A program made the position numbers and the translations under genes. A stretch of DNA of 64,000 nucleotides from Lunularia cruciata (taxonomy: Eukaryota; Streptophyta; Marchantiopsida; Lunulariales; Lunulariaceae): contig OX419758.1 of the NCBI GenBank assembly GCA_948567375.1, forward strand, positions 45,337,473 through 45,401,472. Reading direction: 5' to 3'. The notes beneath the pieces are model-generated. The model worked only from the letters and a program-made list of their open reading frames with translations. It had not been told where the DNA came from and ran no database searches. Positions 1,613 through 36,253 of the stretch are shown here, piece by piece. Position 1 is the stretch's first letter. Every line of letters begins with the position of its first letter.

Positions 1613-1614
1613 TA

Positions 1615-7259: not shown

Positions 7260-7332
7260 ACGCGGGGTGGGGGGGGTGTAATTTTGAGGCCTAATTCATC
7301 TGTTTAGGCCTCCGAAATCGCCTTCAAAGATT

Positions 7333-7645: not shown

Positions 7646-7795
7646 GGTAAATATTGGCCAAACCACATGAAATTTGGCAAAATTTCTATGCATACTTTTC
7701 TTGACCATATTGATGAATGATTTTTGCACCACCTCATAGTCAGATTTGGATTCCCGTTACTCTCACAAATTCCTAATTGCAATTTTTCTCCAACA

Positions 7796-13700: not shown

Positions 13701-14339
13701 GCACCACCACTTGGACATTTGTGAGCTTTGTGCCTATTGAGATGATTCAGGTACATGTTGACGGCAATGGACCGAGTAGGCATGATACTCTTGGGACACA
13801 ACCAATGGCTACTAGTGAGAGTATTCTACTTGGGGTCCATCTAGGTAAGCATGGTCTACTTGGGTTCCACCCTTGGTCTATTTGAGATCCAGCTAGAGGA
13901 CGTATGGAGCTTGTAGCCAAAGTAGAGGACATTTTTTGCACTAAGGTTAAGCATTCTAGTGGTTAGGAGCATGAAATTACTATTCTCAAGGGCCCAATGT
14001 AGTAGCTAATTAATACATCTTCCACTCTTATATCAATTACAAAGGATACTTGGGAGCCAAACATTGGACACAAGCTTATAGGAGAGGAAAGATGGAGGAG
14101 TTTGGAGGTTCTTGAGGAGCTACATGAGTTATTTTGCCTTCAATATGAAAGATTTGGGAGCTTTAAAAGGACTTGGTATTTGGATTGAATTGACTAGTGA
14201 TGCTCTAGTTTTTGACATCCCTATAGATATACGGACATGGAAAGAGCATTGATTCAAAACCAAAGTAGAGACCTTTTTGAGATTGGTTTGGTGGAGATTT
14301 CACATAGAGAGTATGCTTTAGCTACAATGATGCAAACTA

Positions 14340-16260: not shown

Positions 16261-16289
16261 TCCCAACTAGTAGATAAGACCGGAGCACA

Positions 16290-17131
16290 TTGGCATGGTT
16301 AGACATATGAGGAGATGGTGCTAGGTTGGCATGAATCTACTTTTCTATGTATTATTTTTGAGACTTTGATGGTTTCTCTCTCAACACATACAAGAGGAGT
16401 TGTAAAGGTCACAGATCTAAAGAGTGGAGATATTGGTATAGGTCTACAAGACATTCATGATGATATTTTAGTGATGGATTATCTTTTCATTTGTGTTGTG
16501 GATGGCACAATTGATGCCAAGGAGAGAGATCATATCCTTCAACAAGCTAGGTGGTTTAGATTGGAGTGCAAAGACCTTCTTTGTGTATGGGAGGATGATA
16601 GAGTGCAATTAGTATCACTTCAATCTTAGATACCATAGTTGGTACATCATGCTCTTGAGAAGCTAGGACATTTTGGAATAAAGTAGATGTATATATTACT
16701 CTAGAGTTATTATTGGTGGTGGGGTTATGCATATCAATGTATAGCAAGCTGATGCCAAATGTGTGATTTGTGATTGAGTTAGAGAATCATTTAATGCTCC
16801 TATGCTAAAATTATGCCAATTATCTATCATAGGATTGGGTTACCATTGAATTTTGGACTTTGTGTAATCTTTATTGTTAATTGAGACATCATCAATATAT
16901 TTTTGTTATGTTTGAGCACTTTTCCAAGTAGATTGAATTAGTGGTACTTCTTGACAAGTGCAATGAAGGGATAATATACTCATTCTTGGATTGGGTTATT
17001 GGTCATTTTGGTGAACTCATTGAGGTTTTGACCGATTAGGATACAATGTTCTTTGGAGAGTTTTAGGTCTTATGTGACAAGGGCTTGATTGATCATTGTA
17101 CTACCTCCCAAGATCACCTTGACACAAATGG
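16290..17131 (+). pseudogene. Element A integrase region, first part (fossil)
   Basis: Aligned to element B, this holds the linker (the 104-codon frame at 16315-16629 with IHDDILVMDYL) and the zinc-binding and core parts of a DDE integrase: ALEKLGHFG near 16650, a CQMCDL-like block, and the SQDHLDTNG-like run before the catalytic glutamate. Element C is inserted at the end. The remaining integrase resumes at 47030. Confidence 0.75.
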
Positions 17132-18392: not shown

Positions 18393-18498
18393 ATATCGTG
18401 CGTATATACATTGCTACACAACATACATCGCTGTCAACATCATACACTATAGAAGCACAACTCACACATAAGTAATACATAGACTCTAAAGTGCCACA
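18393..18498 (-). repeat. Element B 3' terminal segment (X) and polypurine tract
   Basis: On the minus strand the segment starts TGTGGCACTTTAGAGTC and ends GCACGATAT at the target duplication. It is preceded by the purine tract CTAGGGGGCGAT (18499-18510), as expected at the start of a 3' LTR. Only about 106 bp are present. Homologous segments in element A lie at 47995-48096 and 48530-48617. Confidence 0.7.
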
Positions 18499-18639
18499 AT
18501 CGCCCCCCTAGTTGGCAGTTAGGTCCCTCTAACTCCAGATAGCCATCTATTCTAAGTATATGGTATACCCTCTAATGGGCAAAGATCAGGAGGCCGGGTG
18601 CTATGGAGCCCCATAGTTAGTCGCCTGTCTGCAATCAAT

Positions 18640-18961
18640 ACCATATAAAGAATGAACTAGCTATAAGTCAAGTACATCTAGGACATAACCACTATCCCTG
18701 AGGAACCACCATGAGGGAAGGAGTCATACATGCCATATGCCATCCTCTTGAACAGCTATCACACACTAACATAGTAGCAGCTCCACCAGAAGAGCCACAT
18801 AACATACACCTCAAGCATGCACGTACAAGTGCCAAGCTTGGGTCTATAGTACCATCAATGTTTGGGAGGTGGCATGGCCCACAATTGCGCACATGATCCT
18901 TCCAAACAACACCATCACGTCCTTCTAACACAAGGACTCCATATGGCAAAACCTCGCGCAC
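18640..18961 (-). pseudogene. PHD finger at the 3' end of element B pol
   Basis: The 89-residue frame at 18692-18961 reads CMLC, then CDSC, then a H-x2-C (GWHMAC), and continues to a W-x-C-x2-C block just beyond the frame. The spacing C-x2-C-x11-C-x2-C-x4-H-x2-C-...-C-x2-C is the C4HC3 pattern of PHD fingers, which typically bind histone H3 tails. The preceding block has NCGPCHLPNIDGTIDP. It lies after the integrase, where chromoviruses carry a chromodomain, so targeting of integration to chromatin is a reasonable inference. The copy in element A lies at 47640-47840. Confidence 0.75.
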
Positions 18962-19072
18962 TCTCTAGATAGTGTGGCCTGTAGAAACATCAAGTATCAT
19001 TGGTGCTGTCTGTTGTAGATATATATAGTCGTCTGGATGAAATCGACGGATCAAGGGTCTATAACCTCCTCC

Positions 19073-19900
19073 TCAAATGGTAGCATAGCGTAAAGTATCT
19101 CTATGTTGAGCAATCGCCAAGTTCTCAAAGGCCATTGGCATCACTCTCCAAAAGATCTCTGTCCGCTGAGAACATGCTCTCATCCATACATCAAGGTCAT
19201 CCAAGTCCAAAACTACAGTAGCATCTCGATGAATGGCTGCAGGTAAATCTGGATCTCGCCCATAGAGTAGAAAGTATGGAGAGAAGGATGCTAAGGAGGC
19301 TTTCCGGCTGAACTGATAGCCCATGGCCAACCAAGGTAACTGGAGATCCCAATCTCCCAAGTGGCCTCTCTGCAAACCATACTTTTGCAATCCTCTCTTC
19401 ACCGTCTGAACCACTCTCTCTGCTAAGCCATCTGCCTTAGGGTGATCTTGAGATGTAGTATGATGATCAATCAAAGCCTTGTTACACAAGACCTGAAACT
19501 CCCCCCAAGAACTCTGTACCTTGATCAGTCAAAACCTCAGCTGGTGCACCAAAATGACTAAGAACTTGATCCAGGAACGAGTAAGCTGTCCCTTCACTAG
19601 ACTTGTCAAGAAGTGCCACCAACTCAATCCACTTGGAGAAGTGCTCCACCATCACCAAAAAATACCGATGATGTCTCATAGTCAACAGTAAAGGTCTGGC
19701 AAAGTCCAAACTCCAACGGTAACCCAATCCCATGATAGGTAATGGATGTAACTGTGGCATAGGAGCATTGAATGATGCTCTAACTTGGTCACAAACCACA
19801 CATCTGGCAACAAACTGTTGTACCTCGGTCTGCATACCGCGCCACCAATAATGACTCTAGAGTAAGCTATATGTACGCTTTACTCCAAAATGTCCTAGCT
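19073..19900 (-). pseudogene. Element B integrase region
   Basis: From right to left the parts are a zinc-binding segment with HAHEELGHFGV and CVVCDQVR, then the DDE core. The first aspartate is in RWSLDFARP, the second in VLTDQGTEFLGG and the glutamate in ADGLAERVVQ. Frames lie at 19482-19835 and 19073-19489. The enzyme would insert the cDNA with a 5-bp stagger, consistent with the AGAAG duplication around element B. Fossil. Confidence 0.85.
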
Positions 19901-19922
19901 CCTCATGAGCATGATGGACCAA

Positions 19923-20680
19923 CTATGGTCTCTGGGATGGAAGTGGTACTACTCGCACTTTACCATCCTCCCATACACGCAAAAGGTGTCTACCCTCCAA
20001 TCTGAACCGTTTGGCTCGCTGAAGAACACGGTCTCTCTCCTTGGCCCCAACTGTGCCACCCACAATACCAGTGCGAAGATAGTCCATCACTAAGATATCA
20101 TCATGAATGTCTTGTTGAACTGTACCAATATCTTCACTCTCTAGATCTATGACCTCAATAACTCCTCCTGTATGCGCTGAGAGAGATACCACCAAAGCCT
20201 CTACAAATATACACAGAAAGGCCAATGCATGCAAACCTGGCACCATCTCTTCATCTGTCTCACCATGCCAACGTGCTCCGGTCTGATCCTGCTGGCTGGG
20301 ACATGGGTTTCTACTCAACCCATCTGCATCACGGTTCACCACTCCAGGTCTGTGAACAATCATGAAATCATACTCTTGTAAAATCAGAGCCCATTGTGTA
20401 AGCTTCCCTGAAAGCTTGTCGGACTCCATCAACCACTTCAGCGGCTGATGATTAGTGATGAGAGTGAAGGGGTTACCAAATAGGTAACATCAAAAATGTG
20501 CTACTGCCCAAACTGTTGCCAAGCACTCTCCCTCATATGAACTATACTTTGCCTTTGCTGAATTGTTGGAGCGACTAGCATAGGCCACCACAAACTCCTT
20601 CTCCTCATCATCATGACGGGTGAGCACCGCTCCAAGCCCCAACATACCCCAATTAGTGTGAACCTGAAATGGTCATCCCT
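19923..20680 (-). pseudogene. Element B RNase H and linker region
   Basis: RNase H parts are visible near 20440-20640: HTNWGMLGLGAVLTR, YSSYEGECLATVWAV and NHQPLKWLMESD, followed by the HRPGVVNRDADGLSRNPCP tail. The 169-residue frame at 19923-20432 covers that tail and a linker with DIHDDILVMDYL and KRFRLEGRHLLRVWEDG before the integrase. RNase H removes the RNA strand during cDNA synthesis. Confidence 0.85.
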
Positions 20681-20889
20681 TGATTGGTCTCCTCAAAATA
20701 GGAGCAGATGTCAATGTCTCCTTGAGCTCTACAAAAGCTCTCTCCTACTCATCTCCCCAACACCACTCATGTGTAAGCTTGGTCTGCTTCGTCAAGCCCT
20801 TAGCAATGGCACTATATCCTCTAACATATTGGCGATAGAAGTTCGCCAACCCAAGGAATGCTCGCACTCTGCTCACATCCGTAGGCCAA

Positions 20890-21640
20890 GGAATACGTGA
20901 AATAGCCTCCACCTTGGTCTGCTAGACACCAAGTCCTCCGGGGTAGATAGTGTGACCCAAATACTCAACCTGCTCGTGGAAGAACTTACACTTCCCAGGA
21001 TGTAATTTGAGTCCATGAGATCTCAACCTCTCAAACACCTCCAACAACTGTCTCTCATGCTCCTCCACAGTAGTGCTATAAACCAAAATGTCATCAATAT
21101 AACACCGAGCAAAATCCAATCCAGCTAGGATCCTATCCATGACCCTCTGGAACTCAGCAGGAGCGTTCTTTAACCCAAATGGTAAGAACCTCCACTGATA
21201 TAACACATCCTTGCCGTGAGGATCAATAGCCCAAAATGTTGTCTTGGACTTATCCTCCTCCTTGATCGGCAATTCATGATATCCTGCTCGAAGATCCAAA
21301 GTATTGAAGATCTTTGCATGCCCAATCGCATCAAAAATCTCCTCTGGTGTAAGCATGGCATACCAATCAGCCCTAGTCTGTCGGTTGATAGGACGGTAAT
21401 CTTCACACATCTACCTATCTATATAGTTTCCATGCATATCCTTCTTGGCTGGCATCACTATCACTGAAACATACTCTCCATGTGAAATCTCCACCAAACC
21501 AGCCTCAAAAAGGTCACTACTCTGGCTCTGAATTAATATCCTCTCCATATCACTATATCAATAAGGACGTCGGAAAACTGGTGTGTCGCTAGTCAGCTCA
21601 ATCCGTATACCAAGTCCCTTCAGAGCACCCAAATCCTTCA
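20890..21640 (-). pseudogene. Element B reverse transcriptase region
   Basis: The 162-residue frame at 20922-21410 holds the RT core: CEDYRPINRQT, FNTLDLRAGYHELPI, FLPFGLKNAPAEFQR and the catalytic YIDDILVYS. It continues to LGHTIYPGGLGV and, in a neighbouring frame, FLGLANFYRQYVRGYS. These are typical Ty3/gypsy signatures. This RT differs clearly from those of elements C and D (FIDDF). Confidence 0.9.
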
Positions 21641-21959
21641 TACTAAAGGCAAAACAACTCGTGTGACTCCTCAAGAACCTCCAAACCCTCCAAACCCTCC
21701 GTCTTTCCTCTCCAATAAGCTTGGGTCCAAGATCTGGCTCCCAAGTATCCTTTGTAACTGTAGTAGGAGTGGAAGACGTACTGACTGACTGCTACACTGG
21801 GCCCTTGGGAGCAATAGTGTCATGCTCCCAACCACTAGAGGTCCCAACCTCTGTGTGAAAAACTCCCTCCACTCTGGCTGCAAGCTCCACACGTCCTCTA
21901 GCTGCATCCCATGTGGACCAAGGGTGTAATCCAAGTAGCCCACGCTCACCTGGATGGAC

Positions 21960-22384
21960 TCCAAGTAGACCACTCTCCCTAGTAGCTACTGGGTGTGTCC
22001 CAAGAATACCATGTCCACTTGGTCCATCGCCCCCACCATGTGCCTGAATTGTCTCGATAGGCACAAGGCTCATAAGTGTCCGAGTGGTGATGCCTATCAA
22101 GTGCATCCTACGCTGCTCTGCCAAGCCAAGGTTCACAATCCAGGTCAAATAGTTTAGGTCCATAGCCTGACCTAACACTTGATGCCTGGATGCCTGGATG
22201 CCTCTAACACTACTAGAACAGCGATAATACCGGTGTGAAAACCCATTGCCCGCTCTCTCTCATCAACATTGGGCTCCACCGACTGCTGTAACTGTGAGTC
22301 CCAAACAAGTCCAGGTCCTCCTTCTCAAAAAGCATGGGAGCTTGGGAAACTCATGAGTGTGAGAAATGCGGCTCTAAGCTGTCC
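21960..22384 (-). pseudogene. Element B methyltransferase, C-terminal part
   Basis: Just left of element D the minus strand encodes a VEPNVDERERAMGFHTG block (about 22228-22283), the counterpart of motif IX, and MLGQAMDLNYLTWIV (22134-22178), the counterpart of motif X, which helps form the SAM pocket in C5 methyltransferases. The same blocks follow the first part without interruption in element A (13540-13680). So element D inserted inside the methyltransferase domain. Confidence 0.75.
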
Positions 22385-23076
22385 TGTGAGCCGGCCTGTC
22401 TCTCACTCAGGATGAACCTCTGATGGCTATTATGGTAGCGCACCATGGACTAAGAAGGCAAGGAACCCCAACTCCATCATACTCCTCCAAGGCTAACACT
22501 CCAAGACTCAAGACATTGCTCACTAGAGAACTCAATGAGAGAGAGATAGTTGCAAATGAAAGGATGATGAGTACCTCCTCACTCCTTGTTTATATACTTG
22601 TGAAATAGTTACGTACCAAAGTTACTAATTACCGTAGTAACTCAAGTTACTAGACTAAAAGTCAAGTAAAGTCAAAAAGTAGAAAGGAATATCCATTCAC
22701 ATGGGCATATTCCCCTAAGCATGTGGTCTTATCTTGACCCAACCACTAAAGCAAGGATTCCTTCACATGGGCTATCCTTGGACTAAAGAAGAATCCAAAA
22801 CAAAAAGGCTTGCGGGCCCAAGAGTTCTCAACTCTTTCCCCAAAGCCAAACACCTAGGAATAATACCAAGTCAACACACTAAAATCCAAAATAGTGGTGC
22901 TCATCTTTTCTACTTCCTCTAAAGTAAGGTCCCATCTATCTTAGCTATGACTAACTTTAGCTAACCATGACTAATATAGAACCATCCTTTATCTCTATAT
23001 AAATAATATCTCTTAAGTACTTGTAATACCAAGCTAAATATCACAATACCACACACATGCACAAATGGGTGTTACA
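22385..23076 (-). repeat. Element D 3' LTR
   Basis: 692 bp; on the minus strand it begins TGTAACACCCATTTG and ends CCGGCTCACA. It carries a TATA-like TTTATATAGAG near 23003 (minus strand). The plus-strand frames of 61 and 62 codons are identical in the two LTRs and differ slightly in the solo LTR; I regard them as incidental. Confidence 0.95.
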
Positions 23077-23087
23077 TTTACCCCCGG
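23077..23087 (-). promoter_or_regulatory. Element D polypurine tract
   Basis: On the minus strand CCGGGGGTAAA directly precedes the 3' LTR. This is the usual primer for plus-strand cDNA synthesis. Only 48 bp separate the Gag-Pol stop from the LTR. Confidence 0.8.
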
Positions 23088-23124
23088 ACTAAGTTTTCAC
23101 TTTGTCCTCAAAGTGAAGGTCTCT

Positions 23125-26100
23125 CTACCTTCTATGGTACATCTTCAACTTATCATGGTTAATCCTATCAAAGTGTCTTCCTCCCAACTCCTTGAGATCA
23201 TAGGTGTAATTGCCCCACACCTTCTCTACTATGAAAGGTCCAAAGTACTTAGGCAAAAACTTCTTTTGCACTCTCTTGAATCGAATGGAATCAAACAACA
23301 TTACCCAATCACCTTCTTTGAAAGGCTCCACCTTCTTCTTGCCTTGCCTCTTGTCATAGCTCTCCTTTTGTTTCCTTTGGGCTTGCTCCACTCGAACCAT
23401 AGCAACTGCTCTTGCCTCTTCCAACTCCATGAGTTGATCCTTCCTTGACTTCCCTGCATCACTTCCTTGTGCTTTCTTCAATCTCCTATGAATGCTTTGG
23501 AAGGTAGGAAGATCAAAGTGAATAGGTAAGGTAGACTCAATACCATACACCAATTGGAATGGAGAATATCCAGTGGAAGTCTTCATGGTTGTCCTATACT
23601 CCCACAAAACTGCATGAATCCTCTTGTCCCAATGATGTTTAGCCCCCTCCATTTCTGCATCTTTGGCCAACATCATGCACAAGGTCTGATTGGTTCTCTC
23701 TGCCAAGCCATTGGAATTTGGCTTATAGGATGTAGTTACTCTATGTGTGATAGAGAAATGTCGTAGCATGGCTGTAGTAATGCTTCCTGTAAACTCTCCT
23801 CCTCTATCAGAAACCAACTCCAAAGGGCATCCAAACCTAGTGATAATGCGTTCATAAAGAAATCTACCCACTTCATCTTCATTCTTGTCCCTCAATGGTC
23901 TAGCCTCAACCCACTTGGTAAGGTAATCAGTAACTACCACAATGTACCGATTGTTCCTTGGGGTTCTATTGAGAGGTCCTACAAAATCAATTCCCCACTT
24001 CTCAAAAGGTCCTAGCAATGGAATTGATCTAAGTGGTGGAGTGGATGTAGACTTTCTAGCAAAAGCTTGACAAACATGACAAGTTTTGCAATAATCAAGA
24101 CAATCCTTGAAAATCCCTCTCCAATGGTAACCTGCATCTAGAATCTTGAAAGCAGTCACCTTTCCTGCAAAGTGTCCTCCACATACTAAACCTTCATGAA
24201 ACTCCTTTATGAGTAGGATAGACTCTTCCTTACCCACTGCTCTTCGAAGTAGACCATCTGCTCCTTGGTGAAAAAGAATATCCTCCACCATTGTGTAAGG
24301 TCTAGATCTTGCTGCAAGGGCCTTCCTCTCCCTAGCATGCATCCCTTCTGGATAGTTACCTCTTGTCACAAAATCCACAATCTCCTTGTACTCCATTGGA
24401 ATCTCTTGAGTGACTGAGATTGTCATGAGCTCCTCATCCGGGAAGGAATCATCTACTGGCTCATCTCCATCATGATCATAGGCTCTAGATAACAAATCAG
24501 TATTTGCATGTTTCTTTCCTGGCCTATCCTCAATTGTGTAGTCATACTCAGACAAGAGTATCATCCACCTTGCTAGTCTCCCTTCAACATTAGGCTTGTT
24601 GAAGATGTACTTCAAAGCCTTGTGATCCGTGACAATTGTGGCTTTCCCTCCAATCAAGTAGTGTCTAAACTTCTTGAGACCAAAGATCACTGCCAACCCT
24701 TCTCTCTCTGTGACAGAGTAGTTCTTCTCTGCTGAAACCATCTGCCTACTAGCATAAGCTATTGGATGATCATGCCCATCTTGGTCTAATTGACTAAGAG
24801 TGCATCCTATAGCTACATTAGAAGCATCAGTGTAGAGGATGAAAGGCTTACTCCAATCAGGTTTAGCAAGAATTGGAGCTACAACAAGGGATTGCTTGAG
24901 CTCCTCAAAAGCTTTGAGAGCCTCCTTGTCTTCCAAAATCACCATGTAATCTACACCCTTCTTCATGTAGATGGTCAATGCATAAGCCTTGTTGGAAAAT
25001 GAGAAGATGAACCTCCTATAGTACCCAACCATTCCCAAGAATTGGCGTAACTTTGTCAAGCTTGAAGGGAATGGAAGGTCTGAGATTTTCCTCACCTTCT
25101 CAAGATCAACTGCTATTCCATCCTTGGAGATGATGTGCCCCAAAAGTAGACCTTCTTCACATCCAAAAATGCACTTCTCTGGGTTGAGTGATGCATTTGC
25201 CTCATCCAAGCGTTGCAAGACTTTGATAAGGTGCTCAAAGTGCTCCTCCTTGCTCCCATAGACACAAAAGTCATCAATGAAATCTCTCACAAATTTCCCA
25301 ATGAAAGGTTCAAATACCTTGTTCATGAACCGTTGGAATGTGGCTGGAGCATTGCAAAGCCCAAAAGGCATGACCTTGAAAGCGTAAGTTCCCCAAGGTG
25401 TGGTGAATGTGGTGAGTTGTTGATGCTCTGGTGCAATCTTTATTTGGTTATATCCACTATAACCATCTCCAAAACTGTACCTCTCATGACCTGCAACCTC
25501 CTCCAAGATCTCATCAATGAATGGCAATGGGTAGTAGTCCTTCTTGGTAACAGCATTAAGCTTCTTGTAATCCACACATACCCGAAGCTTGCCATTCTTT
25601 TTCTTCACAATGACAATTGGAGACACCCATTCTGAATTCTCCACCTCAAAGATAAATCCAGCCTCCTTGAGCTTATCAATCTCCTCCTTCACAACCAAAG
25701 ATATTGGTGGGCTAATGCGACGTTGCTTTTGGCGGATTGGTCTTGCATGTGACTCCACCTCTATCTTGTGCTCCTCCAAGGTGACTTCCTTCAAATCCTT
25801 GTAACTAAAAGCAAACACATGGATGAACTTGCGGAAAATCTCCTCAAATCTCACCTTCTCCTCCTTGGTAACATTTGGGCCATACTTGAGGGTAGATAAC
25901 CTTCTCTCTACCTCCTCAAGTGTCAATGGTGATTTATCTGGGTCCTTCAAAACCTCTGGCTTAGGTGCAAAATCCATAGCACACAAGGGATACACATCTG
26001 AATCAGATTCAGATTCATCTTCCTCCGTGGAAGTCTCCTCTTCCATGCTTGTGTCCACACCTGAAGCTCCTTCTTCAGAATCTGATTCCCAATAATTAGA

Positions 26101-27951
26101 AGATGGGGTATCTAAATGTGAAGTGTTGGTGGTGTTAGTCACAGGAACAGTGATTCTATGGTTTGATGGCCCAATCCTCAAGTACCCTTTGTGCCATCGA
26201 TCAGTTGTGCGTGCTGCTCTCAACCATGGCCTCCCAAGAAGTAAGTCATAGCTTGAATCCTTCAAGACTTGGAAAGTCATGAGATTTTGAACTCCCATAA
26301 CTGAAACTACCACCTTATCCATCACCCCTACTGGTCGAACTTGTTGCTTGTTTGCCATGCTCACCACAAATGTTGAAGGTCTTGAGGGTATCATACCCAA
26401 CTTCTTCATCAACCTTTCTGACATGGCATTCACTGCTGATCCTCCATCAACCAATGCATCCTTGATGTTGTGACCATTCACTCTCACATCAATCTTGGAG
26501 GCATATTCACAAGCCTCCCATGGTGCTGGCTTGGCATCCACCACCCCCATTGATACTGGAACTTTTGCCTTCTTTTTCTTTTTGCTCCTTGTAGAACTCA
26601 AACCACCTCTAAGCTCCTTTCTCAAGGTAGGGTTCAAAGCAATTAATTGGCCCACTGTGATGTTAGCCTTGTGACTACCAACATCCTCCAACACATTGTA
26701 GTTCCATTGTTGCTTTGAGATCAAGAAGTCCTCCATCCCCAACTTCTTCCTTGGAGTCTTTGTTGTTGATGGTGTTGAGGTGCGAGTGCTCCTAGTAGAC
26801 ATAGGAGTATCCTTGCTTGAAGTAAATCCTTGAGAAGAGTGAACATCCTCTGCAAAACGAGCTCTCTTCTTCTCTTGTGCCAAAAGCTCCAAATTAAGAC
26901 CCTTGGAGTTTGAGCACTCTCCCTTCTCATACTTGCTCTCAACCACATCTATGGATGCTATCCCCTTACCTTTGTTGGGATTAGGAGCCACTTGGGTTTC
27001 ACTACCTCCCTCTTTCCCTCTATTGGCTCCCTCATAACCCCTTCCTCCATGGTAAGTGGAATTTGGGCAATTCCTTTGGATGTGGCCTCTTCCCCCACAA
27101 CCAAAACAATTTCTATCATTGAAATTGTTGGCTGGTTGGCCTCCTCTATATGGATGGTTTCCATAACTCCTAGGCCCTCTCCCTACATTCTGATCCACCT
27201 CTCTCTTCTCCCATAGTTGCACCACATTGATCTTGAGATCCGCAAGTTGTTCTGTGATGGTTTGGAGTGGATCTTTTGGTGGAGGTGCAAGAATTGGAGC
27301 AACTACTACTTGTGGTGCAACCCTTGTCACCAAAGTATCAGAAGTTCCACCATACTTGTAGCCTTGAGGAGGATGCACAACCTCCTTCACCACCAAATCA
27401 CTCTCATCCCCTTCCAAACTCTCCTCCATACGAATTGCGATCTTGATAGCTTCAACCTTGGAAGAAGGTTTCTCATATCTCACCTTGCTTCTAATTTGTG
27501 GTCTCAATCCTCCCACAAAATTCTTGGTGAGCATGGCCCCTATGCCAATCATTGTAGTCTCCACATCATCCCCACCCTTCCTCAACACTATGCGAAATCT
27601 GGACTCCAACTTTTCCACTCTTTCCACATAGACCCTCACTTTCTCTCCATCTCCTTGCTTGAGAAATGTAACCTCACTCATCAATCTCTCATAACTCTCA
27701 TCAGGAAGAAAGTTCTCAATGAGTGCTGAAGTCAAAGTCTCCCAAGACTCCTCTTCCCCCTCTCTCCTCTCTCTCTTTTGGTATTCTGACTCATACCATG
27801 TAAGTGCTGCATCCTCAAAGAAATCTGGTAATAATGAGGCCCACTCATTCTTCCTCCTCTCATTGTTTCCTATGCAAGCTCTCTTGAAGTCTCTCACAAA
27901 GGCCTCCACATCTTCTCCATCCTTGCCAAAGAAAACCGGAAGTTTCCCCAT
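23125..27951 (-). CDS. Element D Gag-Pol polyprotein (1608 aa)
   Basis: This is one open frame. Residues about 30-190 are a retrotransposon Gag domain, and 282-295 a CCHC knuckle (C282, C285, H290, C295). The aspartic protease has DGGS at 502-505. An acidic linker lies at about 621-652. RT spans about 735-960 with FIDDF at 891-895. RNase H has YTDAS at 1040-1044 and D1109. The integrase has H1252, H1260, C1291 and C1294 as its zinc site and D1322, D1382, E1418 (D-D-35-E). A GPF motif sits at 1571-1573 near the end, and no chromodomain follows. Gag and Pol share one frame, as in many plant gypsy elements. The start at 27951 is the first ATG before the Gag domain. Confidence 0.95.
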   Translation of the reverse strand: MGKLPVFFGKDGEDVEAFVRDFKRACIGNNERRKNEWASLLPDFFEDAALTWYESEYQKRERREGEEESWETLTSALIENFLPDESYERLMSEVTFLKQGDGEKVRVYVERVEKLESRFRIVLRKGGDDVETTMIGIGAMLTKNFVGGLRPQIRSKVRYEKPSSKVEAIKIAIRMEESLEGDESDLVVKEVVHPPQGYKYGGTSDTLVTRVAPQVVVAPILAPPPKDPLQTITEQLADLKINVVQLWEKREVDQNVGRGPRSYGNHPYRGGQPANNFNDRNCFGCGGRGHIQRNCPNSTYHGGRGYEGANRGKEGGSETQVAPNPNKGKGIASIDVVESKYEKGECSNSKGLNLELLAQEKKRARFAEDVHSSQGFTSSKDTPMSTRSTRTSTPSTTKTPRKKLGMEDFLISKQQWNYNVLEDVGSHKANITVGQLIALNPTLRKELRGGLSSTRSKKKKKAKVPVSMGVVDAKPAPWEACEYASKIDVRVNGHNIKDALVDGGSAVNAMSERLMKKLGMIPSRPSTFVVSMANKQQVRPVGVMDKVVVSVMGVQNLMTFQVLKDSSYDLLLGRPWLRAARTTDRWHKGYLRIGPSNHRITVPVTNTTNTSHLDTPSSNYWESDSEEGASGVDTSMEEETSTEEDESESDSDVYPLCAMDFAPKPEVLKDPDKSPLTLEEVERRLSTLKYGPNVTKEEKVRFEEIFRKFIHVFAFSYKDLKEVTLEEHKIEVESHARPIRQKQRRISPPISLVVKEEIDKLKEAGFIFEVENSEWVSPIVIVKKKNGKLRVCVDYKKLNAVTKKDYYPLPFIDEILEEVAGHERYSFGDGYSGYNQIKIAPEHQQLTTFTTPWGTYAFKVMPFGLCNAPATFQRFMNKVFEPFIGKFVRDFIDDFCVYGSKEEHFEHLIKVLQRLDEANASLNPEKCIFGCEEGLLLGHIISKDGIAVDLEKVRKISDLPFPSSLTKLRQFLGMVGYYRRFIFSFSNKAYALTIYMKKGVDYMVILEDKEALKAFEELKQSLVVAPILAKPDWSKPFILYTDASNVAIGCTLSQLDQDGHDHPIAYASRQMVSAEKNYSVTEREGLAVIFGLKKFRHYLIGGKATIVTDHKALKYIFNKPNVEGRLARWMILLSEYDYTIEDRPGKKHANTDLLSRAYDHDGDEPVDDSFPDEELMTISVTQEIPMEYKEIVDFVTRGNYPEGMHARERKALAARSRPYTMVEDILFHQGADGLLRRAVGKEESILLIKEFHEGLVCGGHFAGKVTAFKILDAGYHWRGIFKDCLDYCKTCHVCQAFARKSTSTPPLRSIPLLGPFEKWGIDFVGPLNRTPRNNRYIVVVTDYLTKWVEARPLRDKNEDEVGRFLYERIITRFGCPLELVSDRGGEFTGSITTAMLRHFSITHRVTTSYKPNSNGLAERTNQTLCMMLAKDAEMEGAKHHWDKRIHAVLWEYRTTMKTSTGYSPFQLVYGIESTLPIHFDLPTFQSIHRRLKKAQGSDAGKSRKDQLMELEEARAVAMVRVEQAQRKQKESYDKRQGKKKVEPFKEGDWVMLFDSIRFKRVQKKFLPKYFGPFIVEKVWGNYTYDLKELGGRHFDRINHDKLKMYHRR

Positions 27952-28186
27952 CTTAATCCCTCACTATCTTTCTTTTCTCTTAATTTTTTTTTTCTCTTTT
28001 CTTTTCTCTCACTCTATTACTAATAGAGTATATACATGACTAACACCATCTGAGAATAATCCACTCTAGGGAACACAAAAGGTTCAGGTTGCTCCAAGAT
28101 TTCTATAGCAACATCAAATCCTAGAGTGCATATTAATCTAACTCTCATGGATAGTTTATCCATAAGTTGAAAGATTATCTCCATCA
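27952..28186 (-). other. Element D spacer between the two ORFs
   Basis: These 235 bp contain a pyrimidine-rich tract on the plus strand (purine-rich on the element strand) just upstream of the Gag-Pol start. A short inverted repeat pairs ACTCTAGG near 28063 with CCTAGAGT near 28130. It may matter for how the downstream frame is translated, but that is speculation. Confidence 0.5.
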
Positions 28187-28684
28187 CTAATCTTGAGAAC
28201 TAGCTGATGAAGGTGGTAGTATTTCTGTAGCTGTACTAAGACTCTCTCCAAGATCCTTCACCAAAGTTTCCAAAAGTGCTTTTACTCCACTACACTCATG
28301 TCCTTTTGGAAGTCCTTCAACTCCACAAACCTCACACAACTCCTTGGTCTTAGATCTTCTCCCTCCCAATCTTGGTGAAGAAGGTCCAACATGCAAACCC
28401 AAGTCAAGTAAGCCTCTCCTTTCCCTCAATCTCTTGCTCTCAAAGGTTAATGGACATGAACTTGCCTTATGTCCCTTCTCTCCACATAGAAAGCACTTAG
28501 ACTCACTCTTTCCTCCAAGTGGTGTAGGTTTTTGGATCCTCTCAACACTCTCTTCAAATTCTATTGTAAACTCTCTTTTCCTCAAATCCACCCCTACAAT
28601 CACCTCAAACCCTTTGGGAACCTTGCATAATCTCAATTTCCACTCTTGATGACCCTCCATGTTCCCAAAGATGAATCTAAACAC
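28187..28684 (-). CDS. Element D upstream ORF with zinc knuckles (165 aa)
   Basis: The 165-residue frame lies between the 5' LTR and Gag-Pol. It has a standard CCHC knuckle (C64, C67, H72, C77) and a second cysteine-histidine cluster (C117, C120, H129, C131). The region before the knuckle (GFEVIVGVDLRKREFTIEFE) faintly recalls the DUF4283/zf-CCHC arrangement of plant LINE ORF1 proteins, but I cannot confirm that. A nucleic-acid-binding accessory role is the natural inference. Extra ORFs at this position are known in Ogre-type elements; whether this one is related is open. It could also be a fragment captured from another transposon. Confidence 0.6.
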   Translation of the reverse strand: MFRFIFGNMEGHQEWKLRLCKVPKGFEVIVGVDLRKREFTIEFEESVERIQKPTPLGGKSESKCFLCGEKGHKASSCPLTFESKRLRERRGLLDLGLHVGPSSPRLGGRRSKTKELCEVCGVEGLPKGHECSGVKALLETLVKDLGESLSTATEILPPSSASSQD

Positions 28685-29499
28685 TCAAACATGCTTTTTG
28701 TTGATCTCAAACTTCTCATGCATGAGATCTCCACTCTGCAGAATTGACCCTTCCTCACAATGTCACTCAAATCTCCCAACAAATATGTCACAGTCCTCTG
28801 AAATTTTCCACACTTGATCACAACTCTAGGGCGTCCCTCCCTGCAAAATTTTAGATCTTTTCATCGAGCCATTTGGCCTAGACACCTTTCTATTCAGCAC
28901 CCATATTTCAGATTTGGTCTGAAAACCACCCCCCTCACTTCAAAAACTCATAACGCACTGCGCAAAAATGATCTCTCTCTAATTTTTGTGGCACCAGGTA
29001 GGATACAATGCACTGAATTTTCTTGGAAATTTTCAGGACCATTCACTAAAAATTGAAGAAATGGCAGACTCTGTACAATTTTCCAGAGAGCATGCAGTTG
29101 CGGGAGCACTTTACCCTATCAACTTTCAAAAATTCTAGCCCAGTGCGCATAGAAGCTCTGTCAATAATTTCAAGTGTGCTAACTGAAAGATAACCCAAGC
29201 TATCATGTGTAGAAATCTCAAGTCCAGATCTCAAACTTGAGATTTTGCCCAAAATCACCTTAATCCCCAAAATCTGCAATCCACCTCACACAATCTCTCC
29301 AATTCCTCTCATGTGTACAAGATGTACAAAATCACCTCAAAGACATCATAATGAACTACAGGGTATACAAATGGATCTTGGTTCTCTAACATAAGTTCAG
29401 CCCTCTCCTCTCCTAATGTTCTCTCCAAGTGAGCTCTCATAGCCTCCTTCTGCCTAATGTAGAATTGGACGCGGAACATTATCTTGCCTTCTAGAGAGG
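28685..29499 (-). other. Element D 5' leader
   Basis: This untranslated-looking stretch lies between primer site and first ORF. The 77-codon frame at 29309-29542 starts inside the LTR and runs across the primer site, with AHLERTLGEERAELMLE. It is probably incidental, but I cannot exclude a short leader peptide. Confidence 0.5.
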
Positions 29500-29516
29500 T
29501 CCCGGCAACGGAACCA
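29500..29516 (-). promoter_or_regulatory. Element D primer-binding site
   Basis: On the minus strand TGGTTCCGTTGCCGGGA lies four bases inside the 5' LTR. It resembles the plant tRNA-Asp primer site (TGGCGCCGTTGCCGGGGATC) used by several gypsy lineages, with two or three differences, so the exact tRNA is uncertain. Confidence 0.75.
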
Positions 29517-29520
29517 AAAA

Positions 29521-30212
29521 TGTGAGCCGGCCTGTCTCTCACTCAGGATGAACCTCTGATGGCTATTATGGTAGCGCACCATGGACTAAGAAGGCAAGGA
29601 ACCCCAACTCCATCATACTCCTCCAAGGCTAACACTCCAAGACTCAAGACATTGCTCACTAGAGAACTCAATGAGAGAGAGATAGTTGCAAATGAAAGGA
29701 TGATGAGTACCTCCTCACTCCTTGTTTATATACTTGTGAAATAGTTACGTACCAAAGTTACTAATTACCGTAGTAACTCAAGTTACTAGACTAAAAGTCA
29801 AGTAAAGTCAAAAAGTAGAAAGGAATATCCATTCACATGGGCATATTCCCCTAAGCATGTGGTCTTATCTTGACCCAACCACTAAAGCAAGGATTCCTTC
29901 ACATGGGCTATCCTTGGACTAAAGAAGAATCCAAAACAAAAAGGCTTGCGGGCCCAAGAGTTCTCAACTCTTTCCCCAAAGCCAAACACCTAGGAATAAT
30001 ACCAAGTCAACACACTAAAATCCAAAATAGTGGTGCTCATCTTTTCTACTTCCTCTAAAGTAAGGTCCCATCTATCTTAGCTATGACTAACTTTAGCTAA
30101 CCATGACTAATATAGAACCATCCTTTATCTCTATATAAATAATATCTCTTAAGTACTTGTAATACCAAGCTAAATATCACAATACCACACACATGCACAA
30201 ATGGGTGTTACA
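29521..30212 (-). repeat. Element D 5' LTR
   Basis: 692 bp and indistinguishable by eye from the 3' LTR. A TATA-like TTTATATAGAG lies near 30131-30141, about 75 bp from the LTR start on the minus strand, so the transcript would start early in the LTR. Confidence 0.95.
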
Positions 30213-31098
30213 GTCCAACTAGATTCACCACTGCCATAGGTGACCTATCAGCCACTACCACTATCTGAGACTAATGCCCAACATCCAAGATATCATCAAC
30301 AAGGATGTGGTCAAGTCACTAAATCCCATCATAAGCACGTTGTAGAACCTCTCTGGGTAAGAGGTTTGTCCACCAAAGACGAAGACGATGAGCCCGTGAT
30401 CCCACTTTGGCTGCATCTAACAATACAGTAGGTCCCATCCAAGAATGGACCTGATGTGTACTCGCCACCACTCTAGTGCGAGAATCACCCATCAAAGGAA
30501 CATTCTCTAAAAGGTAAGCTGGATAAATAGACTGATGAACCTGGAGATGTTGTAGTATCCATAACATCTCCCAAAACACACCAGAACGAGGATCCTGAAG
30601 ACCTATTCCTCTACCAGCACGTGTATGTCCCTGACATGGCCATCCAAAAATCACCAAGTGAATAGGCCCATGTCTCTCTAGGTCATGCGCCCCTAATAAG
30701 GAAATGTCTCCTGGTAGGGCCTTTTGGTAACCTCTGATTGTTGACATTGGTAATAACTCCGGATACCGATAGGCCAAGTGTGCCACATGATGTAAAGAGA
30801 CTCGCCTAGCAGTCTCATCTCTCTCTACATACAAGTACCTCTATACTCGTATACCTGCCTATAACACTGCAGCTAGTCTGGTGCTGATCCCACCAAACAA
30901 CTCCAATAGGCATATCCCCTCTACTGGATACGGCCAAACAATGAGTGTGGTATCTAGAGGTGTCAAAGCAATAGCCTCTGGAGGCTCATCCTTACACTTA
31001 TCTCCTGATGCTACGAAGGCTCCACTCCAAGCCTGCTGCATCAACTGATTTGCATGCTGCTGCAATGCCTCCTCTAAACTCCACAATAGAACATCCAA
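30213..31098 (-). pseudogene. Element B C5 cytosine DNA methyltransferase, N-terminal part
   Basis: C5 methyltransferases move a methyl group from SAM to cytosine in DNA. In the 79-residue frame at 30859-31098 the SAM-binding motif I reads ICLLELFGGIS. The 171-residue frame at 30319-30834 opens with YVERDE (motif II). It carries GWPCQGH with the catalytic Pro-Cys at residues 66-67, LLENV at 108-112 (motif VI) and GSRAHRLRLWWTN at 145-157 (motif VIII). The order I-II-IV-VI-VIII-IX-X is the unpermuted one, unlike plant DRM. The motif VIII block recalls AHRARYFWGN of DNMT3. It sits between protease and RT, so it was made as part of Pol. Fossil, but the main catalytic motifs are legible. Confidence 0.85.
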
Positions 31099-32225
31099 GG
31101 TAGATGGAACAATCCCACTTGTACTCCAAAGTCGAGTGATCTCCTATGGTAATGGAGTATCCTTTGCATGGGCGTTCCCCTCCAACAAGTCACCAGGCCA
31201 TGTAACTACACCATTGAAAGCTAAAACTGATGTTGCTATGGTCTCGGACTGTAGTGAGCCAAGACTGCCACTACTGAAGCGTACTGGTAGGCAACATACC
31301 CGTCCCTCACCAGACTGCCAACCAGGTCTATAAGAGGTTGTCTCCTCCCAATAGTCAATGCTGAAACCCGTGGGGTATTACACTGCTCTCCCAACTAGCA
31401 CATCATATGACTCAACTATTGTCGCAATAGCATGAGCTCTCACCACCAAGCTATCAGTCGGATGACCAGGCTGAACCTAGACAACAAGCTCTCCAGTGTG
31501 ATGTCCTGTGTCAAACCACCACCTAGAGATGTCTGGATCTGAAATGGACACCTCTCCACATCGGTCTTCCATAACTCCAGACCGACAACTGCAGCCTTCT
31601 CCAACATAAGGGGCTGCGCACCATAGTCTAACAAGACTCTCTATGGTGTATAGACCTTCCCTGAAGGTCCCACCAAATGGAAAATCCCCCTTTGGTTATC
31701 CAATAGGACAACACCAAGTGTAAACCACGCTCTCTCAAAGGCCGGTCTAGTTGGCAACTCCTCCAGTCTAGCCGCTACTGCCTACCATAAACCACTGGTC
31801 GTTGAACAGATCCCATGCTACTCAACCAAGTCAGCTCCACTACCAACCACCTCTGCTCTAGTAGTAGGAACTGCACCATCCCTACTCTCACACAACGTGG
31901 CAGCCAACCGGAATACTGGGGATGGGTCAACTCCCAATGTAAACATATCACTGGTCAAAAACAAAGGATGTCGCATAATTAGCTGCACCGCCCCCAACAT
32001 CATGCTAGACTCAGTCTGTGTAGTAGCAGGTGGCTGACTAGTAGGTAGTCCATCATGTATTCCATCACCGCCTACCACACTTGCATTGGGACGTCTAGGA
32101 ACCATGGATGTTGTCTATAATGCCTCAAATAGTGTGAAAGACTAGGGAAGTCTGACCTGTCTCCCAACCTCTCCTCTTTGTAGGTCCAACTCCACTGATG
32201 CTCCTCTAGGCTATGGAGCACGTAC
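31099..32225 (-). pseudogene. Element B protease region
   Basis: A retropepsin-like segment is visible near 31560-31640 (LDYGAQPLMLEKAAVVGLELW, shortened here to its core DYGAQPLML), where a D-x-G-A active-site pattern is expected. A conserved tail follows near 31330-31420 (YDVLVGRA, YPTGFSIDYWEET, YRPGWQSGEGR). The 95-residue frame at 31818-32105 covers the stretch after gag. The protease would cut the polyprotein, including release of the methyltransferase. Confidence 0.6.
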
Positions 32226-32917
32226 TGTGAGCCGGCCTGTCTCTCACTCAAGATGAACCTCTGATGGCTATTATGGTAGTGCACCATGGACTAAGAAGGC
32301 AAGGAACCCCAACTCCATCATACTCCTCCAAGGCTAACACTCCAAGACTCAAGACATTGCTCACTAGAGAACTCAATGAGAGAGAGATAGTTGCAAATGA
32401 AAGGATGTTGAGTACCTCATCACCCCTTGTTTATATACTCATGAAATAGTTACGTACCAAAGTTACTAATTACCGTAGTAACTCAAGTTACTAGACTAAA
32501 AGTCAAGTAAAGTGAAAAAGTAAAAAGGAATATCCATTCACATGGGCATATTCCCCTAAGCATGTGGTCTTATCTTGACCCAACCACTAAGTCAAGGATT
32601 CCTTCACATGGGCTATCCTTGGACTAAAGAAGAATCCAAAACAAAAAGGCTTGCGGGCCCAAGAGTTCTCAACTCTTTCCTCAAAGCCAAACACCTAGGA
32701 ATAATACCAAGTCAACACACTAAAATCCAAAATAGTGGTGCTCATCCTTTCTACTTCCTCTAAAGTAAGGTCCCCTCTATCTTAGCTATGACTAAATTTA
32801 GCTAACCATGACTAATATAGAACCATCCTTTATCTCTATATAAATAATATCTCTTAAGTACTTGTTATACCAAGCTAAATATCACAATACCACACACATG
32901 CACAAATGGGTGTTACA
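32226..32917 (-). repeat. Solo LTR of the element D family
   Basis: It is 692 bp, the same length and ends as the element D LTRs, with about a dozen or more base differences. It is flanked by the 4-bp duplication GTAC (32222-32225, 32918-32921); the matching site in element A (near 5020) has a single copy. It is a relic of an older D-family insertion in element B, reduced by LTR-LTR recombination. Confidence 0.95.
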
Positions 32918-34420
32918 GTACTGCACTCCTAGTCAATGCTGTAGATGCATCCACCTGTGCTACTCCGCACATGAAGTCCAAAGCATCTCTATCACCAACA
33001 TATGAGGTGGAAGCCTCAACACCCAAATTTGATCTCCTCTAAGCAATAGCCATACTAGCTAATCTCTACTCCAACTGCTCAATCCGAGTAGCCATAGATG
33101 TGTCAGAAGTAAGGGCAAGTACCACACCCCTACTAGGTGTAGATCCTCTACCACCTCGTCCTCCATGAACTGAAGCTCCTCTACTACCTGCCATAGCAAC
33201 CCTACCACTCCGTAACTCCAAGTGTAGGTCAAAACACTGGTCACTAGTGTGACCAAATCTTTGGCAGTGCTCACACTGCCTCTGTGTTGGCTATGATGCA
33301 CCTGAGGTATCAGGTCCACTGCCCTGAGTACACTCTCTCTGATGGTGAGGTCCACCACAAGTCCAACAAGCAACCCCACCACTCACTGGCTGCTGCTGAT
33401 CCAAAAATGAGGGTAAGAGTCTAACTCCACTCGCTCCATAGGATCTTGGCTGTCCACCCTGTCCTCAAAAACCAACTGGGCGTAGTGCACTCTGCTGCAC
33501 TCTAGAAGAAATCACAGCCATGGATGAGGTCTCCCTACCAAATCCAAATGTCACCACTCTCTCCTCCACCATGTTGAGCTCAATACGCTCAACCAAACCA
33601 AAGACCACTGCCAAAGTAGGCGAAGTAGCCTATAACAACGTAGCATCATGAACTCTATGTCGCAACTCCCTGTCCAGTATCCCATACCAAAACTGGACTG
33701 CCTGGGCCTCAGTAACTCCCTAAGTGAAACTGATCATCCGCCTCATGCGAGTGTATGCCTCGTGTAGGTTCTCTCCAGCCTTCTGCTGGAACTACTGCAA
33801 GCTCCTCAGCTTGTCAGTCCGCACTCCTTGGTAGTTCTGCCTCAAACATAGGAAGAACTCCACCATGGGGTTAAACCCCGGTACCACACCACCTCTTGCA
33901 GCGGTACCTCCAATCGTAGTGGCACTATCTCTAGCTAGTGCCCCTCCTCTAGCTCCACCCACACTACTCAAGCTAGAACTCATAGGTACAACCGATCTAC
34001 TCCTGGCCACCGAGCCTGAAGTGATGGAGACATAGTGTAGAGACCAATACTGTCTCCATAACTCAATCTCCTCCAAATGAGCTCTCTTGAACTCATGGTA
34101 GTCATCCATCGGCAGAGCTTCCAGATGCTGAAACAACCCCTTCTATGCCATGAAGGGTGTGAACAAAGTCGGGTTCCGCATCTACTATAGATCACACCAA
34201 CTATCAAACTCTTGGATGAAGTCATCCAACTCAATGGTACCCATTGTACCAAAGTAACGCCTAGGGCCTTTGGAGGCCCCATAAATCTTGTCCATGTCCC
34301 ACAACAACGGTGCGGACACACCAAGTGCACTCTCAATTGAATCAACTCCTGTGTCAAACTCCAACTCAGAGTCAATCTCCTCCCTCACTGGGACCTGAGA
34401 TACAGGCTGATACCGAGCAC
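32918..34420 (-). pseudogene. Element B gag region
   Basis: It begins with the frame at 34185-34388 (EEIDSELEFDTGVDS, GTIELDDFIQEFDSW). The frame at 33792-34136 continues with DDYHEFKRAHLEEIELWRQY and a Gly/Ser/Ala-rich hinge. Further on are FWYGILDRELRHRVHDA and two knuckles near 33236-33391 (CWTCGGPHHQREC and CEHCQRFGHTSDQC), then a Gly/Arg-rich patch (GSRGASVHGGRGGRG). Gag packages element RNA. Fossil with several breaks. Confidence 0.85.
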
Positions 34421-34883
34421 CACTCTAAGTAAACCTATTGCGTATTGTAGGGCTAACTCCTCTAGAATCTCCAAAGAACTCTGTCGTGACAAAGTAACCA
34501 CAACAACAAACCCGAACCACCAACTGCAACCGCAAGTGCACCCACCAAGTGCCAACACCACCAAGTGCCAATACCAACTAAGCACCACCCACTAATGTAA
34601 CTCTAACCGAGATAACTACACTAGGAGAAAGGGCAACCTATAACCTGCCATCATAACACACACTCTCACGGTCTGTAGGTCATCACTTCTTGCCTCATTG
34701 GAGAGAAACAAAGGTAGTCTGACTAGTCATCACTCCAACCTCACCACCGAGAGCACACCAGAGCACCAACGCTCAAAAGTCAAGGCACCTCACACAAACG
34801 TGGTGCACAAACAAGAAGCAAAGAATGGGAGGATCCAATCACAAGAAATCTAAATGAAAACCCTCCATCTCATAACACAACAC
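34421..34883 (-). other. Element B stretch between primer site and gag
   Basis: It holds a low-complexity patch of TGGTGT/GGCACTTGG repeats (minus strand, about 34510-34590) also present in element A (3365-3470). Otherwise I see nothing in it. Confidence 0.5.
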
Positions 34884-34902
34884 GGGACTGACTCTGCCAC
34901 CA
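34884..34902 (-). promoter_or_regulatory. Element B putative primer-binding site
   Basis: On the minus strand TGGTGGCAGAGTCAGTCCC follows a leader ending in AAATGCCA. It is conserved at the same place in element A. The matching tRNA was not identified. Confidence 0.5.
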
Positions 34903-36253
34903 TTTGGCATTTTACATAAGAGAAGTTTGTATCCAAGTCCTAAGCTACCAGGATCACCAAGAATGGGATCAAACTGCCTTTCCTAGCCAAAGCTACATGC
35001 GTATAGATAACAATGGCACAATCACTAGGACAACAAGTGACGGTGGACCAATTGGCTAGGGCACCAGTCTAGGAACAAGAGATCTAGGGATCAAACCCTG
35101 TTGCGCACAATCTAGCAGGAAAGGCAGATTTTGCCAACCAATGACCAAGATCAACTCTAAACTAGCTAGCCTCACGCCAGCAAGCTGGCTTGCTGGCCCT
35201 TCTAGGCCTTCGTAGCCTCTCATAGCCCACAGCCCTATGCCTCGAAGCCTCTAAATGCCAAATGAGGCCTTTCTTGTTGCCACTTCAAACCTCCTCCAAA
35301 ATTAGCAAAACTTCTCCAAATCTGCAAAATTCCTCCAAACTAGCAAAACTCCTCCAAATCTGGCCAAAATTTGACTTAAATCCCAACCAAAATCTGACAT
35401 AAACCCTAAAGTTGGTTGTCTGCCAAATCCCCCGCTAACTTTCCACTCGAGCCAAATTGACAGCACGAGTTTTTCCAAATCACAAATTCATGAGAAGAGC
35501 TTCCTAACTCCACCTTCAATTTGACTTTTTGAGCCCAACTCGCAGCGAATTGGTCATGCTTTCACCCCCTGAGCTCAAAATCACAACCATTGCTAGAAAT
35601 TTGTTCCTTCTTTGCTCAAAATTTGGCCAGCGATTCCGCACACCGTCCGCCTAACTGCCAAATCCCGCATCAATTGAACAAGCTTCTGCACACTAGGGAA
35701 ACACTGAACTTGAATTGAGCTACCAATGATCCACCAAGCTTGGAGATACCACCAACACTCAAAGTTCTTGCACCCAATTTCCCCCTGACTTCACTTCTCT
35801 GATGTAATCAGATTGCTTACCACTCTCAACTCAACTCAATTTAGATCAATACTTGATCTGTCACTTTATAAACTACCAACAATTGGGCATTGATTACAGT
35901 CAAGCCACACCCACTCAAGCATAGAGAATCCAGGTGACACTCTCCCATCTCTGTCCACCATAGCCAAGAACTCAAAAACTCAACATCAGAGAAGTGAGCT
36001 CTCTGGAGCTCAATTCAAAACTATACCCCTAGACTTGAGCTAGCTCTGAAACCCTAACGGTCCCATTGACGGTACACTTGACGGTCCAAATGGTGCAAAG
36101 TGACGGTGGGCCCCACCGTGAAGTCAGTACCCCAAACAGGAAATCTGACTGTTGGAAAGTAGTCTTTGAGAAACTGCTGAAATAACTCTAACTACTATCA
36201 CAGGAACTCTAGTGTCCGAGCATCTAGATGTGGCACTACAAATGGCATGATAA
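34903..36253 (-). repeat. Element B 5' leader / terminal region (Y and W)
   Basis: The element strand begins TTATCATGCCATTTGTAGTGCC directly at the AGAAG target duplication. The first roughly 430 bp (Y) match 48097-48529 of element A; the rest (W) matches only the 5' region of A. There is no protein-like frame. An internal block has GGGCCCACCGTCAC and several ACGGT repeats (about 36050-36120). Confidence 0.7.

What the first reader, a model, noticed from the sequence alone, without database searches (positions are those of the whole stretch)
18393..36253. Gypsy retroelement carrying both a C5 DNA methyltransferase and a PHD finger
Element B shows, in one element and strand, gag, protease, a methyltransferase with motifs I, II, IV (Pro-Cys-Gln), VI (Glu-Asn-Val), VIII, IX and X, then RT, RNase H, integrase and a C4HC3 PHD finger. 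Known from families: C5 methyltransferases write 5mC, PHD fingers read histone H3 tails, and chromoviral integrases use a chromodomain at the same C-terminal place for targeting. Inference: the element could both choose chromatin for insertion and methylate its own cDNA or the target. Retroelement methyltransferases have been reported in charophytes and dinoflagellates; the pairing with a PHD reader may be new.
Basis: partly seen in the sequence, partly recalled or inferred. Interest (0 to 1): 0.88.

Follow-up and report, generated by a model that had tools for sequence, protein, structure and literature searches.

The report
Gypsy retrotransposon with methyltransferase and PHD
A decayed plant-type jumping gene here encodes, in one element, an enzyme of the kind that puts methyl marks on DNA and a finger of the kind that reads histone marks; relatives in liverworts and mosses carry the same parts, which extends a family known from one green alga.

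Summary
Element B (minus strand, 36253 to 18393) is one insertion: a 5-bp duplication AGAAG flanks it and an intact copy of its target lies at 43343-47027. It encodes gag, protease, a C5 methyltransferase (MTase), RT, RNase H, integrase and a C4HC3 PHD finger, in that order. The MTase is split by a younger Ty3 element (22385-30212) that has neither domain. A second, older copy (A, plus strand) has the same order, and family models match only these two among 1617 frames. Homologues from Marchantia, Calypogeia, Sphagnum and Riccia show, between them, MTase fused to protease and RT, and PHD fused to integrase. The MTase has the DNMT3 fold. Copy A has the split repeats A-coding-B-A-B that de Mendoza et al. 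2018 give for DIRS elements and say KnitGypsy-Dnmt3 of Klebsormidium shares. So this is a new variant of a known kind: DNMT3-bearing Gypsy, now with a PHD finger and in land plants. Both copies are dead. I infer self-methylation plus PHD-guided integration; neither is shown. Host and copy number are unknown, because the genome search did not complete.

The parts
18393..36253 (-). Element B, whole insertion including nested elements
   Evidence: AGAAG target duplication at both ends, intact target copy at 43343-47027
35805..36253 (-). B 5' terminal repeat (repeat 'A1')
   Evidence: 70% identical to 48072-48528 of copy A
32922..34295 (-). B gag with two zinc-knuckle-like motifs, broken frame
   Evidence: 53% identical to Marchantia P0191 residues 1-447; motifs read
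31458..32234 (-). B spacer and aspartic protease (LLDYGAQPLML)
   Evidence: 44% to P0191 445-692; motif
30214..30921 (-). B C5 methyltransferase, N-terminal part: motif I 30909-30889, IV (PCQ) 30645-30628, VI (ENV) 30513-30499, VIII 30399-30370
   Evidence: Pfam PF00145; positions; family model E=5.9e-90
22152..22384 (-). B methyltransferase C-terminal part: motif IX 22261-22238, motif X 22175-22152
   Evidence: tblastn P0191 1114-1178 at 65% over 22384-22190
20504..21743 (-). B reverse transcriptase and start of RNase H (lower bound approximate)
   Evidence: PF00078 E=3.7e-31; P0196 at 60% over 21743-19977
19926..20489 (-). B RNase H end and linker
   Evidence: PF17917 E=4.2e-9
18823..19856 (-). 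B integrase (zinc-binding, DDE core, C-terminal domain)
   Evidence: PF00665, PF17921; P0067 at 78%
18674..18808 (-). B PHD finger, C4HC3, same frame as the integrase C-terminus, one internal stop
   Evidence: PF00628 E=2.4e-7
18393..18500 (-). B 3' terminal segment (repeat 'B1') after a G-rich tract; the last 27 bases are not in the alignment
   Evidence: 18500-18420 is 83% identical to 48528-48609
22385..30212 (-). Nested young Ty3/Gypsy element E; intact 1608-aa gag-pol at 23125-27951; no MTase, no PHD
   Evidence: 692-bp LTRs 100% identical; Pfam
32226..32917 (-). Solo LTR of the E family inside B
   Evidence: 97.7% identical to an E LTR
1612..17131 (+). Copy A, 5' part: repeat A1 1612-2039, gag, protease region, MTase 12683-13693, RT, RNase H, start of integrase; a copia-type element (about 6166-12640) is nested in it
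   Evidence: copia reading by eye from the translations
47030..48632 (+). Copy A, 3' part: rest of integrase, PHD 47655-47822, then repeats B1 (47984-48095), A2 (48080-48530), B2 (48516-48632); aligned ends overlap by up to 16 bases

Best explanation
B is a dead copy of a retrotransposon family of land plants and their algal relatives, Gypsy by its proteins. Its coding order is gag, protease, DNMT3-type C5 methyltransferase, RT, RNase H, integrase, PHD, and the older copy A shows DIRS-like split repeats at its ends. Shown: anatomy, single insertion with 5-bp duplication, second copy, homologues, DNMT3 fold of a whole relative, catalytic and zinc residues kept in B. Inferred: in live copies the methyltransferase, packaged with RT, methylates cytosines of the new cDNA or the new insertion, so that the copy enters the genome already marked; the PHD at the integrase C-terminus docks the integration complex on histone H3 tails, probably lacking K4 methylation, and so steers it to silent chromatin, as chromodomains do for chromoviruses.
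Against: No live copy was seen as DNA. CpG depletion, a possible trace of self-methylation, is no guide: o/e 0.15 in the nested element that has no MTase, 0.34 in B, 0.13 in A. The 2018 paper found no methylation in yeast by the KnitGypsy-Dnmt3 enzyme and calls this inconclusive. Phage methylases match well too (a tblastn hit of 85 bits; a PHROG profile at 8.5e-24), against 48 bits for DNMT3A in phmmer, so the donor is open. Closterium relatives have no PHD. The PHD-only model did not match P0207 at E up to 10. The dN/dS values are between two pseudogenes, and the PHD's is 0.72 over 48 codons. In the 25-row alignment only five of the eight PHD ligands reach 90% conservation (several rows are truncated or mutated). 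The integrase-PHD model was poor (pLDDT 44).
Confidence: 0.5

Rival explanations
1. The MTase acts on the host or on RNA rather than on the cDNA: it alters host methylation, or methylates the element's RNA, and the PHD serves nuclear retention or integrase assembly rather than targeting.
For: The 2018 paper raises RNA methylation for the LINE-type elements. Position in Pol does not fix the substrate.
Against: Sequence and fold are nearer to DNMT3 than to DNMT2 (by sequence; no DNMT2 among the 50 rows shown); PHD fingers of this kind mostly bind histone tails (recalled).
Confidence: 0.25
2. The MTase and PHD are captured passengers without a role in the life cycle.
For: Both window copies are broken; Closterium relatives live without PHD.
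Against: 59 of 65 MTase hits and 118 of 120 listed integrase-PHD hits are at least 50% identical; the catalytic Cys and the Glu-Asn of motif VI are invariant in 13 bryophyte-type rows and at least 90% conserved in 32 rows; dN/dS between A and B is lowest in the MTase.
Confidence: 0.15
3. The two domains belong to different nested elements that only look like one.
For: The region is a nest of several elements.
Against: A second copy in another nest has the same order; natural ORFs in other species join MTase to protease and RT, and integrase to PHD; B has one target duplication.
Confidence: 0.02

Closest known systems
KnitGypsy-Dnmt3 of Klebsormidium nitens (de Mendoza et al. 2018, PMC5890265; abstract and section 9 read, other passages by find)
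   Same: Gypsy Pol with a DNMT3-type MTase inside it; repeats described as those of a DIRS element, which copy A here also shows
   Different: PHD not mentioned in the main text; host a charophyte. Sequence not compared, as none was to hand under its name
SymbioDIRS-Dnmt3 of dinoflagellates (same paper)
   Same: DNMT3-type MTase in Pol; A-coding-B-A-B repeats
   Different: Tyrosine recombinase instead of an integrase, per the paper
Chromoviruses (Gypsy with C-terminal chromodomain; recalled)
   Same: A histone-reader-type domain at the integrase C-terminus
   Different: PHD instead of chromodomain; MTase added
Ginger1 transposases of Hydra (PMC2836005, passages seen)
   Same: Table 1 lists a PHD at the C-terminus of one family's Gypsy-type integrase
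   Different: DNA transposons; no RT or MTase (recalled)

Membership tests
Ordinary two-LTR Ty3/Gypsy retrotransposon | Order protease, RT, RNase H, integrase with DDE core | tested here: met
Ordinary two-LTR Ty3/Gypsy retrotransposon | 5-bp target duplication | tested here: met
   AGAAG
Ordinary two-LTR Ty3/Gypsy retrotransposon | The same LTR at both ends | tested here: not met
   B has A1 at 5' and B1 at 3'; A has A1 and B1-A2-B2. So it is Gypsy by its proteins but not filed as an ordinary LTR Gypsy
DNMT3-bearing Gypsy (KnitGypsy-Dnmt3 type) | DNMT3-type MTase inside Pol of a Gypsy element | tested here: met
DNMT3-bearing Gypsy (KnitGypsy-Dnmt3 type) | A-coding-B-A-B repeats | tested here: met
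   Copy A only; B lacks the last two blocks
DNMT3-bearing Gypsy (KnitGypsy-Dnmt3 type) | Common descent with the Klebsormidium sequences | not tested
   No sequence under that name was fetched
DIRS | Tyrosine recombinase, no integrase | tested here: not met
   DDE integrase present
Chromovirus | C-terminal chromodomain | tested here: not met
   PHD in that place; no chromodomain hit in the B frames scanned or in 25 relatives
DNMT3 | Catalytic domain fold and motif order I, IV, VI, VIII, IX, X | tested here: met
DNMT3 | ADD or PWWP domain beside the MTase, as in animals | tested here: not met
   No such Pfam hit in 16 of the 34 polyproteins (those scanned); PMC12344493 says algal DNMT3s lack such domains
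PHD finger | C4HC3 zinc ligands | tested here: met
   B: all eight; A: fourth Cys is Tyr
PHD finger | Binding to a histone tail | not testable with these tools
   needs a binding assay

The most novel reading that the evidence does not exclude
A land-plant retroelement family carries its own writer-reader pair, a DNMT3-type 5mC writer and an integrase-borne reader of unmethylated H3K4, remaking within one element the coupling that animal DNMT3 has between its ADD reader and its catalytic domain; each new copy is aimed at silent chromatin and arrives methylated. It does so with DIRS-type split repeats and a Gypsy integrase, so its replication differs from that of ordinary LTR elements.
Probability: 0.25. 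Interest if true: 0.85.

Novelty: new variant of a known kind. Interest (0 to 1): 0.62.

Why it matters
A transposon that encodes an enzyme for the very mark used to silence it is a standing puzzle. A family that also encodes a putative chromatin reader, with near relatives in the model liverwort Marchantia and in Sphagnum, would let self-methylation and targeting be tested in a tractable plant. It also moves DNMT3-bearing Gypsy elements from one charophyte into land plants, and warns that some bryophyte genes annotated as PHD or cytosine methyltransferase are pieces of this element.

Tried and rejected
Different nested elements joined by chance: rejected by copy A and by fused ORFs elsewhere. 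Self-methylation read from CpG depletion: tried, not specific. Prokaryote or phage origin of the MTase: phage matches exist (202 records, all under 60% identity; the eight listed are 24-31% identical) and viral contigs gave 28 loci whose best segments are 27-53% identical (loci not read), so the donor stays open. Rfam: no match at gathering scores. Viral contigs with the MTase piece, the integrase-PHD alignment and P0207: no relative. Trees of MTase (31 rows) and RT (13 rows) place B with the bryophyte rows; the deep forks are unresolved. The MTase of P0211 and P0214 lies after RNase H, not before RT, so more than one arrangement or acquisition is possible.
Full report
What is there. The window is a nest of plant-type transposable elements. 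Self-comparison shows the order of events: copy A (plus strand) is the oldest; element D, a Gypsy-type element with LTRs of about 3.7 kb, sits inside A's integrase (A stops at about 17131 and goes on at 47030); B sits inside D's left LTR; E, a young Ty3 element with identical 692-bp LTRs, sits inside B. B's ends are exact: AGAAG at 18388-18392 and 36254-36258, and at 44527 in the intact D LTR.

Domains of B. Pfam on separate frames finds RVT_1, RNase H, integrase core, DNA_methylase and PHD. Homologues found by protein search were then mapped back on the window: P0191 of Marchantia covers gag to MTase (34295-32922, 32234-31458, 31467-30214, 22384-22190), P0196 covers RT and RNase H (21743-19977), P0067 covers integrase and PHD (19835-18671, 78% identity). 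The gaps are just where the E solo LTR and E lie. MTase motifs I, IV, VI, VIII, IX and X are present in B (I and VIII differ from Marchantia by one residue each) and the eight PHD ligands are kept. In A the catalytic Cys of motif IV is Tyr, ENV reads DNY, motif VIII is altered, there are stops in IX and X, and the fourth PHD Cys is Tyr with a stop beside the zinc His. Stops and frameshifts make both copies dead.

Control. Models of the MTase and of the PHD, run over all 1617 stop-to-stop frames of 25 aa or more, match only A and B at E up to 0.01. Pfam itself did not call a PHD in A's frame. The intact E polyprotein has neither domain.

Relatives. The MTase piece found 65 proteins and, in a longer size class, 34; the integrase-PHD piece found 259, of which 120 were listed. 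Named sources: Marchantia polymorpha, Calypogeia fissa, Riccia sorocarpa, three Sphagnum species, and for more distant MTases two Closterium strains. Of the 120 listed integrase homologues, 78 align through query residue 266 or beyond, that is well into the PHD; the others end earlier or shift frame; a strict C4HC3 pattern is met by 51 of 120. A chosen set of 25, picked mostly because the listing showed PHD, all match PF00628, so that number is no independent count. In Closterium, 2 of 2 ORFs that reach the integrase C-terminus have no PHD. P0207, one ORF of 1494 aa from an unnamed source, has MTase, RT, RNase H, integrase and a C-terminus that fits the family model of integrase end plus PHD (83.6 bits, model positions 1-145 of 147), with a degenerate finger that neither Pfam nor the PHD-only model calls. 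P0205 (protease-MTase) and P0075 (integrase-PHD) both list a longest contig of 36,659 bases from the same source, which suggests, but does not show, one contig. So no single undamaged protein with both a sound MTase and a sound PHD was seen; the pairing rests on copies A and B and on overlapping proteins elsewhere.

Ends. In A the blocks read A1 (1612-2039), coding, B1 (47984-48095), A2 (48080-48530), B2 (48516-48632); A1/A2 are 71% and B1/B2 74% identical. This is the A-coding-B-A-B order that PMC5890265 gives for DIRS elements and says KnitGypsy-Dnmt3 shares. It is seen in one old copy only; no clear target duplication was found around A by eye. B has A1 and B1 only. I infer that recombination between B1 and B2 removed A2, as solo LTRs form, since the target duplication is kept; a copy that never had A2-B2 is the alternative.

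Selection. Between A and B, guided by homologues, dN/dS is 0.42 for the MTase, 0.53 gag, 0.58 spacer-protease, 0.71 RT-RNase H, 0.57 integrase core, 0.80 integrase C-terminus, 0.72 PHD over 48 codons. Both are pseudogenes, so values lean to 1; they are consistent with earlier constraint on the MTase, and weak for the PHD.

Mechanism. The best reading is cDNA or insertion methylation by the MTase and H3-guided integration by the PHD. The first rests on the fold, the motifs and the yeast result for the dinoflagellate DNMT3 elements; the same test was negative, and called inconclusive by the authors, for the Klebsormidium one. The second rests on place (integrase C-terminus, the chromodomain's place in chromoviruses, recalled) and on likeness to PHDs such as CHD4, PHF21A, KDM5 and ATXR5; that these favour H3 without K4 methylation is recalled. 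Composition gives no support: CpG o/e is 0.34 in B, 0.13 in A, 0.15 in E, 0.32-0.33 in D, 0.18 in the copia.

Known or new. DNMT3 in Gypsy Pol with DIRS-like repeats is known from one charophyte. A 2025 paper (PMC12344493, passages) repeats this for streptophytes and dinoflagellates, naming Copia and DIRS. I found no report of the PHD pairing or of the land-plant family in the listings of searches (searches listed 15 of 98 and 15 of 34 papers) or in the passages opened; figures, supplements and closed papers were not seen. The host species is not known to me; B lies among bryophyte rows in the MTase tree but outside the named genera.

Noticed in passing
22385-30212: Young Ty3/Gypsy element with 100% identical 692-bp LTRs and an intact 1608-aa polyprotein; a solo LTR of the same family at 32226-32917. 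It looks recently active.
   Followed up: partly
about 17132-18392 and 36259-47027: Gypsy-type element D with unusually long LTRs (about 3.7 kb) inserted in the integrase of copy A; its left end was not fixed exactly.
   Followed up: partly
14342-15925: RT part of copy A is present twice in tandem (77% identical), so A holds a partial duplication or a third copy.
   Followed up: no
P0077, P0083, P0086, P0089, P0099, P0126, P0152: Marchantia gene models of 154-222 aa named PHD-type domain match the integrase-PHD end of this element family, so host annotation may be misled.
   Followed up: no
P0211, P0214: Polyproteins with the MTase after RNase H rather than between protease and RT: a second arrangement.
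   Followed up: partly
48640-64000: Copia-like frames to about 52.8 kb (read by eye), then other sequence; the whole stretch has higher CpG (o/e 0.63) than the elements, perhaps nearer to genes.
   Followed up: no
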